Assembly (NCBI GenBank): GCA_017512725.1
Contig: JAFWEW010000023.1
Location: forward strand, 1 to 64,000
DNA length: 64,000 nucleotides
Origin: Solobacterium sp.
GTDB lineage: Bacteria; Bacillota_I; Bacilli_A; Erysipelotrichales; Erysipelotrichaceae
Direction of reading: 5' to 3'
Both the position numbers and the translations under genes were made by a program. How positions within the stretch are numbered: position 1 is the first letter of the stretch; each line of letters opens with the position of its first letter. Below the pieces are notes generated by a model. It saw only the letters and a program-made list of their open reading frames with translations, was not told where the DNA came from and ran no database searches. Shown here in pieces: positions 1-18,556 of the stretch.

Positions 1-270
1 ATTGCGGCATCTTTCTTCCATCTGACGAAGACTGTACACCTGGTTCATATACGCGAACAGCACGACTTTCATCATCATGAGGCTATTGTGACCCTGATTT
101 CCGCGATGTGGTTTCAGGTACTTCTTCAGATTTACCTCCTTAATAACCTCAAGAAATGACCACAGGGGATCATATTTGTCGATAGCGACAGATAAATCCA
201 GTGGTAATCGCAGCTGTTCTACGTTATAATCCAAGTGGTTGGTTGGGTTATAGTTAGAACATGCTTGCAT
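1..270 (-). CDS. IS1182-type transposase, N-terminal part (cut by window edge)
   Basis: Reading the minus strand from the ATG at 270 gives 90 residues with no stop up to the window edge. They include a leader-like start (MQACSNYNP), the block LPLDLSVAIDKYDPLWSF, a YLKPHRGNQGHN stretch and MNQVYSLRQMEERCRN. This is the amino-terminal domain (DUF772-like) of transposases of the IS1182/IS5-like group, which comes before the DDE catalytic domain. The catalytic part lies outside the window, so I cannot say whether the element is intact. It sits next to two leader-peptide genes, which suggests a mobile junction. The family call is from memory of the motif pattern, not from a search. Confidence 0.8.
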   Translation of the reverse strand, partial: MQACSNYNPTNHLDYNVEQLRLPLDLSVAIDKYDPLWSFLEVIKEVNLKKYLKPHRGNQGHNSLMMMKVVLFAYMNQVYSLRQMEERCRN

Positions 271-363: not shown

Positions 364-645
364 TTACCACATCGCTTTACCGGTGTTCCCGAAATAATAG
401 ATTTCTTTGGAGCAGGAAGCAGATCTGCCATATTTCTTAAAAAATCTTACCGCCTTATTTGCCAGATCTTCATCAATATATTCCTTAGAATTTCTCAGAA
501 AATAACCGTCATTGGCGATCCATCCCGGATCGAGGATTGTAATGCCTGCGGCATCGTATTCTTCGTCTGAGTATTTATCCATCAATCCGCCGCCGGAAAC
601 GTTGTCTAATTCGGTTTCTTCAATCTTCCTGATATCTTCTGCCAT
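364..645 (-). CDS. Small protein with double-glycine leader (VSGGG), unknown core
   Basis: The protein is 93 residues. I chose the ATG at 645 because AGGAG lies 7 bases upstream and because the upstream neighbour starts the same way; a longer frame to 723 lacks such support. Residues 1-20 (MAEDIRKIEETELDNVSGGG) form an acidic leader ending in a double glycine, the cleavage signal used by C39-peptidase exporters of class II bacteriocins and related precursors. The core of about 73 residues is acidic then basic, with one cysteine and no zinc ribbon. The leader is nearly identical to that of the gene at 739-1020, so the two are tandem paralogues at least in the leader. No exporter lies beside it. 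Function unknown. Confidence 0.65.
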   Translation of the reverse strand: MAEDIRKIEETELDNVSGGGLMDKYSDEEYDAAGITILDPGWIANDGYFLRNSKEYIDEDLANKAVRFFKKYGRSASCSKEIYYFGNTGKAMW

Positions 646-738
646 TTCTAAATTTCTCCTTTTCGTCAATTGCATTAGTGAATACAGAGAGGCGGAGCGG
701 ATCTTAAAGATCTGCCGCATCACGAAACAAAGTAAAAA

Positions 739-1020
739 CTATTCAAAGTCAGTCGTATGGCGCCAGTAGTCGCAGTAAAGACAAGGAACCGCCGCACAGC
801 CAAACTTTTCAAACTGTCTTACGACGCGGTTTTGGTAAGGCGAATAACGTGCCCAGACTTCATTTCTGTCAAATGTCTTTTTGCAGAACTTGCAGGTCTT
901 GCCATTAAGCGAATCCATCACCGCAAGCATGTCATTCATGGTGGCACCTGCTGCAGCCAGAGCACCGCCGGAAACTTCGTCTAATTCCAGTTCTTCAATC
1001 TTTCTGATATCGTCTGTCAT
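739..1020 (-). CDS. Small protein with double-glycine leader (VSGG) and two CxxC pairs
   Basis: The protein is 93 residues and has AGGAG upstream of its ATG. The leader MTDDIRKIEELELDEVSGGA matches that of the next gene at most positions. The core starts with a small hydrophobic stretch (ALAAAGAT), then carries CKFC (about residue 43) and CLYC (about residue 81), a spacing that suggests a zinc-binding ribbon or knuckle. The 5' untranslated sequences of this gene and the next share an AAAGGAGAAATTT ribosome-site block and a CAATTG further up, so duplication included the leader region of the mRNA. Classical bacteriocins rarely have such a ribbon. Function unknown. Confidence 0.65.
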   Translation of the reverse strand: MTDDIRKIEELELDEVSGGALAAAGATMNDMLAVMDSLNGKTCKFCKKTFDRNEVWARYSPYQNRVVRQFEKFGCAAVPCLYCDYWRHTTDFE

Positions 1021-1391
1021 TTCAAATTTCTCCTTTTTGTCAATTGCTTTGCTGAGTGTGGAGGTGCCTGATCAGCATAAAACCACAATCAGATCATCTG
1101 CATCTATTTATACGATATATATGGATATTATCCACGAACAATCATGTAATGCCCACTTCCTGACCGTCCAAAGCCGGCAGGAACAGGCAACTTGAAGATT
1201 CAGTGAAAAGTGTTGTGTTGCAATAATTGCCATGGATTTATTTATTAATAATTACAGGGACAGAATATCGTCTATTCTCATCCACAAACAGACTTCTTAT
1301 CAATGTTTCATCCTCTTTATGTTCACTATTCTAATACAACCATCCAAATATCCTGAGAGGAATTCAATTCTCTCTCCCGGATCGAAGGAAA
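1021..1391. other. Intergenic region, likely promoter of the leader genes
   Basis: No convincing gene is seen here. On the minus strand an AT-rich stretch near 1107-1125 contains TATAAA and could be a -10 region for the leader genes, leaving a 5' untranslated region of about 90 bases. The part from 1200 to 1391 is AT-rich without a recognisable signal. Confidence 0.35.
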
Positions 1392-2246: not shown

Positions 2247-2864
2247 TCAGAAATGATTCCAGTGGATCTGCTCTTCGGTGTTGACATCCAGCTGTTTGAC
2301 CTTGGCCGCATCTTCACGGGGACGGCCGATCCCGATGAAGCAGGGGATCATGAAGGAATCCGGGAAACCAAGGGCTTCTCGCGCAATCTCTTCCTCATTC
2401 CCCAAAGGGATCCGGACATTACATCCATAACCTTCTGAAGTTGCCGCAAGCCACACATTTTCAATACTGCACCAGATGGAGGCATAGCAGTTGAGATCAG
2501 ACAGGCAGGAGGGATGAAGGAGATCTGTTTTTTTCTTCATCAGCGGGATGAGAAGTGCTGACGCTTCGGTCAGCATCTTATACTGCAGCGGTACTGCGAT
2601 CTGATAGCTTTTCTTTTGGATCGGGTCGCTGATGAAAGTCATATCATCTACATCTCGTTCGGTCAGATTCTGCGGCACGCCGCTGACTGCCTGTTTCATG
2701 ATTTTCTTATCCGTAATCACGATGTAATGCCAGTCCCGGAAATGATCATTGGCCGGTGCGTAATATCCGGCTTCGACAATTCGCTTCAGGGTTTCCTCCG
2801 GAATTGTTTCCCCGGTAAACTGCCGGATGCTTCGTCTGGCCTTCACAACATCATAGAACTCCAT
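2247..2864 (-). CDS. Nitroreductase family protein
   Basis: The 205-residue product begins MEFYDVVKARRSIRQF, the usual start of FMN-dependent nitroreductases in which the RRS(I/V)R motif binds the flavin phosphate. The APANDH..DW.YIVI segment and the late GYGCNVRIPLG and IGIGRP blocks also fit. These enzymes reduce nitroaromatics, quinones or related electrophiles with NAD(P)H in the cytoplasm. I place the start at 2864, preceded by AAGGAAGA; a longer frame to 2990 would run through the flavodoxin gene. It overlaps the upstream flavodoxin gene by 14 bases and is the last gene of a MarR-controlled operon, which points to a redox or electrophile response. Confidence 0.85.
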   Translation of the reverse strand: MEFYDVVKARRSIRQFTGETIPEETLKRIVEAGYYAPANDHFRDWHYIVITDKKIMKQAVSGVPQNLTERDVDDMTFISDPIQKKSYQIAVPLQYKMLTEASALLIPLMKKKTDLLHPSCLSDLNCYASIWCSIENVWLAATSEGYGCNVRIPLGNEEEIAREALGFPDSFMIPCFIGIGRPREDAAKVKQLDVNTEEQIHWNHF

Positions 2865-3447
2865 TGTCTTCTTCCTTAGAATGATTTCTGATCGGATCAC
2901 AAGCAGATGTATCTGTCTGGGACAGTGCCTGGAGGATTGGCTCCAGACTGTTGAAATTGGTGAAATCAACCTGTTTGTTATAGGTTTCAATCATTGCCTG
3001 AACTTCTGCGTTTTTCTGTTCCTCCGGCAGGTTGACCGCTTTCCGGTAAACCATCGACATCATTGTTTTATGCAGAAAACTCAGCTGCGCATAATCGATG
3101 CCGCCTCTCAGATGAAAGATCTGAGCCTGCTCAAACAGTTCCTTTGATAGCTGGGATTTCATTTTGCTGCGGATCGTTTCGATGTTTTCCGGATCGGTCG
3201 GATCGGCAAGCCCCACGGTGACGATCATGACGTTCTTATGAGGAAGATCGGAAAGATGCTTCAGCGTCTGTTTCATTCCCTGTACGCCGCCGGCATATAA
3301 TCCACCCATGTAGATGATTGTTTTATAAGAATTGATGTCTTCAACGTTCTCATAGGATACTGCCGGGATTCCGGTTTTTTCAGACAGCGCTTCGGCATAT
3401 CTCCGGGTGGCTCCGTAACAGGATCCATAGACAATGATTTTATTCAT
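2851..3447 (-). CDS. Flavodoxin-domain protein
   Basis: The 198-residue protein starts MNKIIVYGSCYGATRRYAEAL: the S-x-Y-G-A-T-x-x-Y phosphate-binding loop of flavodoxins of the HemG/BilS-like type. Next come an IIYMGGLYAGG strand-loop and a VMIVTVGLADPTD segment. These are short-chain electron carriers or FMN proteins. The C-terminal third (about residues 120-198) is less typical and rich in helices. It lies between marR (8-base overlap) and the nitroreductase (14-base overlap), so the three are almost certainly translated together. Its exact partner is unknown; electron supply to the nitroreductase is an inference. Confidence 0.8.
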   Translation of the reverse strand: MNKIIVYGSCYGATRRYAEALSEKTGIPAVSYENVEDINSYKTIIYMGGLYAGGVQGMKQTLKHLSDLPHKNVMIVTVGLADPTDPENIETIRSKMKSQLSKELFEQAQIFHLRGGIDYAQLSFLHKTMMSMVYRKAVNLPEEQKNAEVQAMIETYNKQVDFTNFNSLEPILQALSQTDTSACDPIRNHSKEEDNGVL

Positions 3448-3925
3448 GACTCACCGCCTCCTGCAGGTTGTTCTCCAGTTTGAGGATGGTTTTGATCGTC
3501 GTTTCCAGTTCACGTTCGGATATATCGGAAAACAGATGGTTCATAAACGGCATGCTCATCGCATCATTTTTCTCACAGAACTTCTGACAGGATCTCGTCA
3601 GATGGATCCGCTGTTTTCGCTTATCCGCATCATCTGCGCGGAACTCAATAAAGCCTTTCTGTTCCAGTTTCAGAAGGATCTGTTTCACATTCTGATGGGA
3701 ACTGCCCAGAATATCGGAGAGTTCTTTCAGTGTTGGCGGTTCCTTACACGCATTGATACAGATGATCGCAAAAAACTGTTTCCAGCTGATTTCCTTCATC
3801 AGGTTGTCCGCAGCTGCCTGAAAGCGATTCTCAAATGCACTCAGCAGTCCCATCAGATACCCATTTGACGGGACACTGGAAAAATCAACGTTCCCGCTCT
3901 GCAATACTTCTTCCAGATTCTTCAT
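3440..3925 (-). CDS. MarR-family transcriptional regulator
   Basis: The 161-residue protein has the MarR winged-helix pattern: LKELSDILGSSHQNVKQILLKLEQKGFIEFRADDADKRKQ spans the recognition helix and the wing, where the D-x-R-x-x-x-x motif is typical. I start it at MKNLEEV (3925) because the upstream alternative ATG at 3952 lies inside the operator palindrome. The gene heads the flavodoxin-nitroreductase operon and sits 20 bases from two inverted copies of a 14-bp palindrome, so autorepression relieved by an electrophile or aromatic ligand is the simplest model. The ligand is not predictable from sequence. Confidence 0.85.
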   Translation of the reverse strand: MKNLEEVLQSGNVDFSSVPSNGYLMGLLSAFENRFQAAADNLMKEISWKQFFAIICINACKEPPTLKELSDILGSSHQNVKQILLKLEQKGFIEFRADDADKRKQRIHLTRSCQKFCEKNDAMSMPFMNHLFSDISERELETTIKTILKLENNLQEAVSHE

Positions 3926-3944
3926 CTTGTTTCCCAAAAAAAAA

Positions 3945-3993
3945 GGTAACATATTACCGTATAAAAGGTAATATGTTACCTGATTTGTGTCAA
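3945..3993 (-). promoter_or_regulatory. Paired operator and promoter of the marR operon
   Basis: GGTAACATATTACC (3945-3958) and GGTAATATGTTACC (3967-3980) are exact reverse complements of each other and each is itself nearly palindromic; centres are 22 bp apart, two helical turns. On the minus strand a TTGACA box (3988-3993) lies just upstream of the pair, so bound repressor would cover the promoter. This fits MarR-dimer sites. Confidence 0.8.
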
Positions 3994-4026
3994 GAAAGAT
4001 TCAAAGAATCTGATGCTTTGCAGGAG

Positions 4027-4956
4027 TTACTTTGCGCTGAAGGTTTCCAGCAGCTCAATGATGCGCAGGCTGATCGATTCGGTTTCCGGATCCGAGATGA
4101 TGCCGTTTTCAATCCGGTCGATAAACCGCTGCGCTTCAAAGGTGAATTCACTGCGGAATGGGAACTGATATTCTTTCTCCCCGTCATCCGACTGTATCCA
4201 ATACCGGTCGCTTTTCCAGAAAGAAGTACAGGTCAGGGTTCCCTTACTTCCGCGGATACGAAGATCACAATCCCCGTCTTCCTCAAACGAATAGCGCATG
4301 GTCATCGGGATGCCATCGCAGTCCATATGGAATACGCCTCCGGTATCCGTTCCCGAAACGGAACACTGATCAGTTGAGACAACAGTCATCTTTGTTCCAA
4401 ACAATCCGAATAATCCGGCAAGGCCGTAACAGCCCACATCATATAAAGCTCCTTTGCCGGGTGTATTCAGCCGCCATTCCTCCGCGTCATGCGGCTCTTT
4501 TCGGCAAAAGCCGGCAGAAGCCTCCAGTATCGTTCCAAGCTCCTGATTCTTCAGTACTTCCTTGATGGATTGAAAGGTCGGTGTATACAGGGTCTTATGC
4601 GCTTCCATCAGCACCAGATTGTTGGAACGGGCCAGTTCAAACAGTTCCTTCAGCTGATCTGCGGTGACCGTGACCGGTTTCTCACAGATCACATGTTTCC
4701 CGCTAAGCAGTGCCTGTCTGATCATATCGTAATGAACATGGTTGGGTGTGGATACATAGAAGCCGCGGATCGAAGGATCTTTACAAAGCGCATCAAAGGA
4801 GTCGATCTGATGGATCTGATATGCTTCGGCATATTCACGGACACGGTCTGGGTTTCGGGTGGCGAATGCACAAACACGGCCATTTGGCACATCCTTCATG
4901 CCTTCGAGAAACCTGCGGCTGATCCGGCCGGGGCCGGCAACTGCGATTTGGATCAT
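4027..4956 (-). CDS. Gfo/Idh/MocA family oxidoreductase
   Basis: The 309-residue protein starts MIQIAVAGPGRISRRFLEGM, a Rossmann NAD(P)-binding loop, and has the family hallmark CEKPVTVT near residue 95, whose lysine takes part in catalysis. The EAHKTLYTP and GALYDVGCYG segments fit the C-terminal substrate domain. Members oxidise or reduce sugars, inositols or related hydroxy compounds; the substrate cannot be read from sequence. It stands alone upstream of the marR operator. The 170-base gap to the kinase gene at 5127 should hold divergent promoters, but I saw no clean consensus. Confidence 0.85.
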   Translation of the reverse strand: MIQIAVAGPGRISRRFLEGMKDVPNGRVCAFATRNPDRVREYAEAYQIHQIDSFDALCKDPSIRGFYVSTPNHVHYDMIRQALLSGKHVICEKPVTVTADQLKELFELARSNNLVLMEAHKTLYTPTFQSIKEVLKNQELGTILEASAGFCRKEPHDAEEWRLNTPGKGALYDVGCYGLAGLFGLFGTKMTVVSTDQCSVSGTDTGGVFHMDCDGIPMTMRYSFEEDGDCDLRIRGSKGTLTCTSFWKSDRYWIQSDDGEKEYQFPFRSEFTFEAQRFIDRIENGIISDPETESISLRIIELLETFSAK

Positions 4957-14148: not shown

Positions 14149-14427
14149 ATGGAAAAAGTGTTTCGTGATACACCTGAGATTTTAAAAACCGATCATCTGG
14201 AAACGGTGTCGGCAGGGACTGAGAGGGCAGCCGGCAATTCCGGCATTCCTCTGCCGGGGGTTACCATGCCGACATGTACGATCTGCGGAAGCAAAGATAC
14301 AACGTGTGATGTTTTTAAAGAAAATGGAAAGTGGTACAAACAGTACAAATGTCTGAGCTGCGGCTCATATTTTTCGGAACGGCAGGAAGTTCAAATTCCC
14401 GATCAGATGCAGGTCAGGCCGCGGTGA
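14149..14427 (+). CDS. Small zinc-ribbon protein with leader ending VSAG
   Basis: The 92-residue protein has AAGGAG 10 bases before its ATG. The N-terminus ends in DHLETVSAGTE, which aligns with the VSGG leader ends of the next two genes but has Ala for the first Gly. The core holds CTIC (about residue 42) and CLSC (about residue 69) around an aromatic/basic strand region (KWYKQYK), a zinc-ribbon layout. It is the first of three such genes in a row on the plus strand. Whether the VSAG leader is still cut is unclear. Function unknown. Confidence 0.65.
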   Translation: MEKVFRDTPEILKTDHLETVSAGTERAAGNSGIPLPGVTMPTCTICGSKDTTCDVFKENGKWYKQYKCLSCGSYFSERQEVQIPDQMQVRPR

Positions 14428-14620
14428 TAATCATCCGGGTTTGATTACCGATTGAAGAGCATTTGGCATCGCTGATGAGAAAGGAAACGGTACCGTGTTT
14501 TTCGGTTATGAAGAGGAACCGTTTGCGAAATTGATCATTTTCTAGGAATAATTCTTTTCGGAAAACGATGTAATGCATGACAGGTTCCATTACAATTTAA
14601 AAAAGGAGAAGGAACGATCC

Positions 14621-14815
14621 ATGGGAGAAGAAAAGAAAGAAATTAATCCGGATCAGGAAAAAACGGTCAGCGGTGGTGCTGCAGCGCTTCCGAATATCTT
14701 TACCTGTCCGGAATGCGGGTCAAACGAAGTTTCTGTGACTTATATTTATACGAAAGAAGGAAAACGAATCCCGACAGGTTTGAGGTGCCGCAGCTGCGGT
14801 CATACCTGGAAATAA
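14621..14815 (+). CDS. Small zinc-ribbon protein with VSGG leader
   Basis: The 64-residue protein begins MGEEKKEINPDQEKTVSGGA, an acidic leader with double glycine, and AAGGA lies 7 bases before the ATG. The core of about 45 residues is nothing but a zinc ribbon: CPEC ... LRCRSCGHTW, the same pattern as transcription-factor-type ribbons (TFIIS or rubredoxin-like knuckles). Such a ribbon behind an export leader is unusual. A longer frame begins at 14573 but lacks a ribosome site. The preceding 190 bases (14428-14620) hold no gene I can support. Confidence 0.65.
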   Translation: MGEEKKEINPDQEKTVSGGAAALPNIFTCPECGSNEVSVTYIYTKEGKRIPTGLRCRSCGHTWK

Positions 14816-14925
14816 TGTCTGAAACGTTGCGGAAGGAAACGGCAGGTTCACTCTTCAGAGGGGAACTTTCCCGCGGATCTCCTGAGACATTGGTATGAAT
14901 TCAATCAGAGAAAGGTGAGGGTGAA

Positions 14926-15141
14926 ATTTTTAAGGAAGATGTAAAAGAAATCAATCAAAAAGAACTCGACACGGTGTCCGGCGGACACGAGGAGGACTGC
15001 TGCACCCATTATGTCTGTCCGATCTGCGGGGAAGAACTGATTCTGGTCAGATTTTATGGTTTCACGAAGCTTTACTATAAATGTTATGAGTGCAGTGAGA
15101 ATTTCAGCCTGGAAGAGATCGAGGGGAAAAACGGCCAGTGA
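14926..15141 (+). CDS. Small zinc-ribbon protein with VSGG leader, probable ATT start
   Basis: An open frame from 14899 to 15141 encodes a leader (FKEDVKEINQKELDTVSGGH) and a core with CPIC and CYEC knuckles, clearly a paralogue of the preceding gene. The frame has no ATG, GTG or TTG before the leader: a TGA stands at 14896, and the first usual start is the GTG that codes the V of VSGG. AAAGGTGAGG stands 6-10 bases before an ATT at 14926 that would give a 71-residue protein with a normal-length leader. ATT is a rare but known start. If it is not used, this is a pseudogene whose start was lost. Confidence 0.5.
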   Translation: MFKEDVKEINQKELDTVSGGHEEDCCTHYVCPICGEELILVRFYGFTKLYYKCYECSENFSLEEIEGKNGQ

Positions 15142-18232: not shown

Positions 18233-18556
18233 TTAATATTTTGTGATGACTCCATAACTGGATACTTTGAAGTAGCAGTTACATTTCCGGCATCTGTATT
18301 TGGTTGCGGAATCTGTAAACATTGAAGCCCAGAACTGACGTGAAATTTCATCTCTTTCTCCGTTGCCGCAGTCAGGGCAATGGATGTCGATATCAAGTCT
18401 TTTATAACCTCCATTCACTTCTTCTAAATAGTTGTCAGGAAGAGACCTCTCAAATTCTTCCGGATCGATTCCGTTGTCGGCCAGAATCTTGCATACCTGA
18501 ACATCGGACTCTGCTGACTCAAGCTTTGTCAAAAGTTCCTTTGGTAAATTCATCAT
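18233..18556 (-). CDS. Nif11-like leader protein with zinc-ribbon core
   Basis: The 107-residue protein has a long leader (about residues 3-50) of the Nif11 type: an LTKLESAESDVQVCKILADN helix, NGIDPEEFERSLP, and the end LEEVNGG. Nif11 leaders serve RiPP precursors in cyanobacteria and other bacteria. The core holds CPDCGNGE and YRCRKCNCYF, a zinc ribbon rather than a thioether or bacteriocin core. AAGGAGATG lies 7 bases before the ATG. It stands alone, next to the toxin-antitoxin pair, and is a longer-leader relative of the zinc-ribbon genes at 14149-15141. Function unknown. Confidence 0.65.
   Translation of the reverse strand: MMNLPKELLTKLESAESDVQVCKILADNGIDPEEFERSLPDNYLEEVNGGYKRLDIDIHCPDCGNGERDEISRQFWASMFTDSATKYRCRKCNCYFKVSSYGVITKY

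What the first reader, a model, noticed from the sequence alone, without database searches (positions are those of the whole stretch)
364..1020. Tandem leader genes with duplicated 5' untranslated region beside an IS element
Both genes have nearly identical leaders (xxDDIRKIEExELDxVSGG-like) and an AAAGGAGAAATTT ribosome-site block, yet the cores are unrelated: one acidic/basic without ribbon, the other with two CxxC pairs. Core swapping behind a constant leader is how precursor families diversify. The adjacent transposase could have helped.
Basis: partly seen in the sequence, partly recalled or inferred. Interest (0 to 1): 0.55.

Follow-up and report, generated by a model that had tools for sequence, protein, structure and literature searches.

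The report
Shared export tag, unrelated small proteins
Two neighbouring small genes of a gut bacterium carry the same copied "export me" tag and ribosome site in front of unrelated small proteins, and they belong to a scattered set of similarly tagged proteins that a dedicated cutting-and-export pump probably secretes.

Summary
Genes A (739-1020, -) and B (364-645, -) share a double-glycine leader (15 of 19 residues; leader DNA 84%) and its 5' flank (40 nt, 80%), while their cores are unrelated. B's core belongs to a small family (four homologues in three congeners, E 3e-17 to 6e-7) that sits behind other leaders there, with no second GG-leader gene seen nearby. A's core, with two CxxC pairs, has no relative among 195 other genomes searched. 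Among 60 GG-leader genes, A/B is the only pair with near-identical leaders and non-homologous cores, so a leader block was probably copied. The IS1182 fragment's role is untestable: the contig ends inside it.

The setting is larger: the genome has two NHLM-type peptidase/ABC exporter pairs, no LanC or YcaO, and about ten other dispersed GG-leader genes, several with zinc-ribbon-like cores (thioredoxin and LysM in relatives). Leader counts track the exporter across 70 genomes of the genus. I read A and B as substrates of a leader-tag secretion system, a variant of the known NHLP/Nif11-exporter kind. Export and function are inferred.

The parts
739..1020 (-). Gene A: 93 aa, GG leader (964-1020) plus 74-aa core (742-963) with CKFC and CLYC
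   Evidence: ORF list; leader; no Pfam family above cut-off; no relative below E 0.01 in 195 other genomes
364..645 (-). Gene B: 93 aa, GG leader (589-645) plus 74-aa core (367-588) of a small conserved family
   Evidence: ORF list; homologues; profile
1021..1060 (-). 5' flank of A with ribosome site, alike to that of B
646..685 (-). 5' flank of B with ribosome site, alike to that of A
1..270 (-). N-terminal part of an IS1182-type transposase, cut by the contig end
   Evidence: NCBIfam NF033551 E 9e-8; Pfam DUF772; only copy found in the assembly
14149..14427 (+). Leader-type ORF ending VSAG with zinc-ribbon-like core (read from the sequence)
   Evidence: no Pfam match at E 0.01
14621..14815 (+). 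GG-leader ORF (VSGG) with zinc ribbon core
   Evidence: PF01096 23.5 bits against cut-off 21
14899..15141 (+). Open frame with VSGG leader and CxxC pairs; no ATG/GTG/TTG before the leader, so unusual start or degenerate
18233..18556 (-). ORF with a 50-residue leader ending NGG and zinc-ribbon-like core
   Evidence: core homologue behind an 87-aa leader in L131
58911..59183 (-). GG-leader ORF (GISGG) with a core of unknown family
   Evidence: no Pfam match at E 0.01

Best explanation
A and B are two members of a dispersed set of double-glycine-leader small proteins. The end of the leader is read by the C39 peptidase domain of an NHLM-type ABC exporter encoded elsewhere in the genome, the leader is cut after GG, and the 74-residue core is exported, probably without lanthionine or azoline chemistry. 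The leader with its ribosome site behaves as a module: one leader/5'-flank block was copied (by duplication, recombination or gene conversion) and now heads two unrelated cores. Shown: the shared block, the unrelated cores, B's core behind other leaders in relatives, dispersed GG-leader genes, two exporters, and their statistical co-occurrence. Inferred: cleavage, export, absence of modification, and the role of the exported proteins (competition or surface binding would be guesses).
For: Shared leader and flank. B-family cores with other leaders. A/B is the only one of nine high-leader-identity pairs without core homology. Two C39 exporter loci, the first over the TIGR03796 cut-off. Leader pattern 9 hits in the own genome, 0 in the reversed control. 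18 genus genomes with the exporter average 4.7 pattern hits, 52 without it 0.85, one-sided Mann-Whitney p 7e-8; control pattern no difference. Hydrophobic -12 in 61 of 62 leaders although not selected for, as LahT150 needs (PMC6363468, section 8). No LanC-like or YcaO in the genome.
Against: No GG-leader gene was found beside either exporter. G049 has the exporter and no pattern hit; 3 of 52 genomes without it have three or more hits. The co-occurrence test is not corrected for kinship or for incomplete genomes. Pairwise core score of A and B is above all but 8 of 2000 shuffles. Radical SAM/SPASM proteins exist in the genome. No expression or cleavage data.
Confidence: 0.68

Rival explanations
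1. A whole gene was duplicated in tandem; leader and ribosome site stayed alike under selection while one core diverged beyond recognition. No leader was swapped.
For: Tandem position; equal core length (74 aa); a 14-residue core stretch scores above all but 8 of 2000 shuffles. Tandem paralogues with kept cores exist in relatives (L096, L099, L124).
Against: A does not fit the B-family profile (0.8 bits; 485 of 4000 shuffles higher). The non-coding flank upstream of the ribosome site is also alike, so divergence since the copy is modest. The L096 pair, with leader 0.92 and flank 0.85, keeps clear core homology (score 226).
Confidence: 0.17
2. A and B form a two-peptide bacteriocin: both are exported and act together on competitors.
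For: Two adjacent GG-leader genes on one strand, 93 bp apart.
Against: Cores of 74 aa are long for such peptides (recalled). B's homologues show no GG-leader partner nearby. No immunity gene lies between A, B and the IS fragment; the nearest upstream gene on the strand, 1392-1982, was not examined as an immunity protein.
Confidence: 0.1
3. A and B are precursors of modified peptides (RiPPs), matured by a radical SAM enzyme before export.
For: The exporter family is that of NHLP/Nif11 precursors (PMC2887384, passages); five SPASM matches in the genome, four over the cut-off, one near a Nif11-type precursor on C43.
Against: No LanC-like or YcaO. A and B have no NHLP/Nif11 leader match. No modification gene was seen beside A/B. 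In relatives such leaders head thioredoxin and LysM domains, which are folded proteins.
Confidence: 0.1

Closest known systems
NHLP/Nif11-leader precursors with the TIGR03794/TIGR03796/TIGR03797 exporter (Haft, Basu, Mitchell 2010, PMC2887384; passages read)
   Same: Same exporter family (C39 ABC protein plus second ABC protein); paralogous GG-leader genes with variable cores; species distribution tied to the exporter; a mix-and-match view was already proposed there.
   Different: A and B have short leaders with no NHLP or Nif11 domain; cores are 74-aa mini-proteins, not Ser/Thr/Cys-rich peptides; genes lie away from the exporter; no LanC or YcaO in the genome.
LahT PCAT of a Lachnospiraceae bacterium (PMC6363468; passages and section 8 read)
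   Same: One C39 protease cuts many leaders; -4, -7 and -12 matter; the last 13 leader residues suffice and short leaders are accepted.
   Different: Its nine precursors lie in one cluster and have Nif11-type leaders; lanthipeptide-type substrates were tested, not folded domains.
MAM of Faecalibacterium prausnitzii (PMC8836110; passages read)
   Same: A protein, not a modified peptide, with a conserved GG site at residues 20-21; the C39 transporter is in another chromosomal region in several strains.
   Different: Different core; one or two copies rather than a dispersed, varied set; its export by the transporter is a hypothesis there.
Class IIb two-peptide bacteriocins (recalled)
   Same: Adjacent GG-leader genes.
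   Different: Long cores, no recognised immunity gene, B's homologues unpaired.

Membership tests
Double-glycine-leader substrates of C39 (PCAT) exporters | GG at -2/-1 with hydrophobic residues at -4, -7, -12 | tested here: met
   A and B both have V-4, L-7, I-12 (leaders; set of 62; requirement)
Double-glycine-leader substrates of C39 (PCAT) exporters | A C39-peptidase ABC exporter in the genome | tested here: met
   Two loci, C45 and C12
Double-glycine-leader substrates of C39 (PCAT) exporters | Precursor gene beside the exporter (usual, not universal) | tested here: not met
   A and B on C1, exporters on C45 and C12; no GG-leader ORF beside them by regex
Double-glycine-leader substrates of C39 (PCAT) exporters | Cleavage after GG and export | not testable with these tools
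   Needs an assay
NHLP / Nif11-leader RiPP precursors | NHLP or Nif11-like leader domain | tested here: not met
   No such NCBIfam or Pfam match for A or B up to E 1
NHLP / Nif11-leader RiPP precursors | Modification enzymes (LanM/LanC or YcaO) | tested here: not met
   No PF05147 or PF02624 match in the genome; SPASM proteins are present
NHLM exporter (applied to the C45 locus) | TIGR03796 over its cut-off | tested here: met
   923.3 against 853.3 bits
NHLM exporter (applied to the C45 locus) | TIGR03797 and TIGR03794 over their cut-offs | tested here: not met
   693.7 against 709.4 and 28.2 against 156.2 bits
Class IIb two-peptide bacteriocin | Conserved as a pair | tested here: not met
   B homologues show no GG-leader partner in the stretches read; A has no homologue
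Class IIb two-peptide bacteriocin | Immunity gene in the operon (recalled) | not tested
   The membrane protein at 1392-1982 was not examined for this

The most novel reading that the evidence does not exclude
In these Erysipelotrichaceae and many gut Clostridia, NHLM exporters serve as a general secretion route for unmodified, folded mini-proteins (zinc ribbons, thioredoxin, LysM and others), addressed by a short, mobile leader module that can be placed in front of new cores anywhere in the genome. A/B is a captured, fairly recent leader transfer.
Probability: 0.42. Interest if true: 0.72.

Novelty: new variant of a known kind. Interest (0 to 1): 0.52.

Why it matters
If true, a transporter family filed under bacteriocin/RiPP export is also a wider small-protein secretion system, and many short, mostly unclassified GG-leader genes in gut bacteria are its cargo. 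The A/B pair gives a concrete case of a leader copied in front of an unrelated core, which makes leader mobility testable by comparing strains.

Tried and rejected
Relatives of A: none of the 195 other genomes matches A below E 0.01 (best 0.0148, with a stop inside); none in plasmids, in viral contigs (where only near-exact 8-residue stretches are sought) or in genome contigs by the leader patterns of A and B (253 pattern hits, none confirmed). A as a diverged B-family member: rejected on the profile, although the pairwise score left a doubt. PDB sequence search: nothing for A; three matches at E 0.7-0.98 for B, taken as chance. Single-sequence structure models were poor (mean pLDDT 60.8 and 43.3), so no fold search was run. 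Promoter-like sites in 280-1400: 2 found, 2.5 expected, uninformative.

Rows dropped or weak: 4 of the 61 ORFs ended in GA rather than GG and were left out (they look like chance frames or parts of other proteins); one of the 60 rows (window:14623) was misframed and left out. Of the 75 pattern hits in the 17 other exporter-bearing genomes I took stretches for 46, preferring hits that read as a leader, so the ORF set is not a random sample. The regex list (104 ORFs in 39 of 80 loci) contains evident false rows. The regex missed two of the four B homologues themselves (L214, L228), so for partners I rely also on the looser scan.

Literature searches for GG-leader domains or zinc ribbons with C39/NHLM export. 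From the listings and starts of abstracts I saw no such report; the library lacks most subscription papers and bioRxiv as such.

Full report
What is there. The window is the first 64 kb of contig C1 (93,116 bp) of a 2.72-Mb genome in 45 contigs. Two genes lie on the minus strand: A (739-1020) and, 93 bp downstream, B (364-645), each 93 aa with a 19-aa leader ending VSGG and a 74-aa core. Another 93 bp beyond B begins the N-terminal part of an IS1182-type transposase, cut by the contig end. It is the only copy found in the assembly, so nothing can be said about what the IS did.

Is the likeness more than chance? Leaders agree at 15 of 19 residues and leader DNA at 48 of 57 bases; no codon shuffle comes near (maximum 19 against 40). 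The likeness runs some 33-40 nt upstream through AAAGGAGAAATTT, and the part upstream of the ribosome site is itself alike (1 of 5000 shuffles). It stops at the GG codons: core DNA is at shuffle level (229 of 1000).

Are the cores related? Pairwise, a 14-residue stretch gives a score reached by 8 of 2000 shuffles, which left a doubt. B then turned out to have homologues in three congeners: G010 twice, G060 and G007, E 2.8e-17 to 5.7e-7 (weaker matches, also in G060, were not used). A profile of these four without B gives B 63.7 bits, while A scores -0.1 (865 of 4000 shuffles as high or higher); with B in the profile A scores 0.8 (485 of 4000). I therefore treat the cores as unrelated. A has two CxxC pairs, no Pfam family above cut-off and no relative among the other 195 genomes.

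Swap or fixed pair? B's homologues sit behind leaders whose DNA is only 51-63% like B's, the level of random pairs (mean 0.57, sd 0.07 over 1770 pairs), whereas A's leader is 84%. No second GG-leader ORF was seen in the stretches around the four homologues, which are about 3.2 kb long for three and 2.0 kb for the fourth, L228 (L212 and the larger L240 were also read). For some of the four the start codon I used may not be the true one; the leader comparison is anchored at GG and hardly affected, the 5'-flank comparison may be. Among 60 GG-leader genes, nine pairs have leader identity of at least 0.80: eight keep homologous cores (scores 226-441) and only A/B does not (37). So A/B is an exception, and a leader-block copy explains it best. 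The reverse also occurs: one core type with a CAxTVExGSxC motif stands behind leaders of 28 aa (L109, L115), 46 aa (L100) and 58-62 aa (L113, L112), the longest with a weak Nif11-leader match.

What A and B belong to. A leader-DNA pattern (up to one mismatch) hits the own genome 9 times and its reversed control 0 times. Apart from A, B and one spurious hit these are leader-type frames on C1, C12 (with a second in tandem), C14, C26, C37 and C43. Reading the window adds those at 14149, 14621, 18556 (-) and 59183 (-). The genome has two loci with a C39-peptidase ABC protein followed by a second ABC protein: C45, with an ECF sigma factor and a short HlyD-like protein upstream, and C12. No GG-leader ORF was found beside either by regex in the 19-kb stretches. 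Among 70 genomes of the genus, own included, 18 carry such an exporter (over 500 bits, my threshold; the lowest is 587 and the next genus genome 379) and average 4.7 pattern hits; 52 lack it and average 0.85; 13 of 18 against 3 of 52 have three or more; the control pattern shows no difference. Kinship was not corrected for and many genomes are fragmented. G049 has the exporter and no hit.

Substrate logic. In 62 leaders, position -4 is hydrophobic in 62, -7 in 61 and -12 in 61. The regex demanded -4 and roughly -7, but not -12; orthologues among the 62 are not independent. LahT150, a C39 protease domain, needs -4, -7 and -12, and the last 13 leader residues suffice (PMC6363468, section 8). Cores have a median of 70 aa (13-108), and 11 of 59 have two or more CxxC. 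Examples from other genomes are a thioredoxin (L127, PF00085 E 5e-16) and a LysM domain (L183, PF01476 E 4e-18); the window's 14621 ORF matches zinc ribbons weakly; 6 of the 10 proteins tested had no Pfam match at E 0.01. 'SH3-like' for L046 is my reading of the sequence, not a family match. The genome has no LanC-like or YcaO protein but five SPASM matches.

The organism. The exporter's closest named relatives are an uncultured Solobacterium from reindeer (78%) and an uncultured Erysipelotrichaceae MAG (74%), so the genome is probably a gut Erysipelotrichaceae; this is inference. The same call gave 80 loci, mostly gut Clostridia; a regex found GG-leader ORFs in 39 of them, an upper estimate with some false rows.

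Comparison with the known. The exporter family, paralogous GG-leader precursors and a mix-and-match view were published in 2010 (PMC2887384, passages). MAM of Faecalibacterium is a precedent for a GG-leader protein whose C39 transporter can lie elsewhere (PMC8836110, passages). What I did not find in print, within the searches named in Tried and rejected, is export of small folded domains by short leaders from dispersed genes. A and B fail the NHLP/Nif11 membership test but meet the leader test for C39 substrates. Hence a new variant of a known kind.

Verdict. Export and function are unproven.

Noticed in passing
L236 (own genome, contig C43) 2312-4674, minus strand: A Nif11-type leader precursor (4420-4674), a Fic-like ORF (3706-4398, named from recall) and a radical SAM/SPASM protein (2312-3703) in a row: looks like a separate, ordinary RiPP cluster.
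   Followed up: partly
window 14149-15141: Three successive leader-type frames with zinc-ribbon-like cores; the third has no usual start codon before its leader and may be degenerate.
   Followed up: partly
window 18233-18556 (-): Zinc-ribbon-like core behind a 50-residue leader ending NGG; a homologous core stands behind an 87-residue leader in L131.
   Followed up: partly
L046 1471-2065 (own contig C12) and L120 1990-2584 (G032): A tandem pair of GG-leader genes is nearly identical in two species, leaders, flanks and cores alike, which suggests recent transfer.
   Followed up: partly
L127 1988-2368 (G032): A thioredoxin with CGPC behind an 18-residue GG leader, a candidate secreted redox protein.
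   Followed up: partly
L183, L195, L198: Sets of GG-leader genes with LysM-type cores in the loci of the exporter in other gut Firmicutes (only one tested against Pfam).
   Followed up: partly
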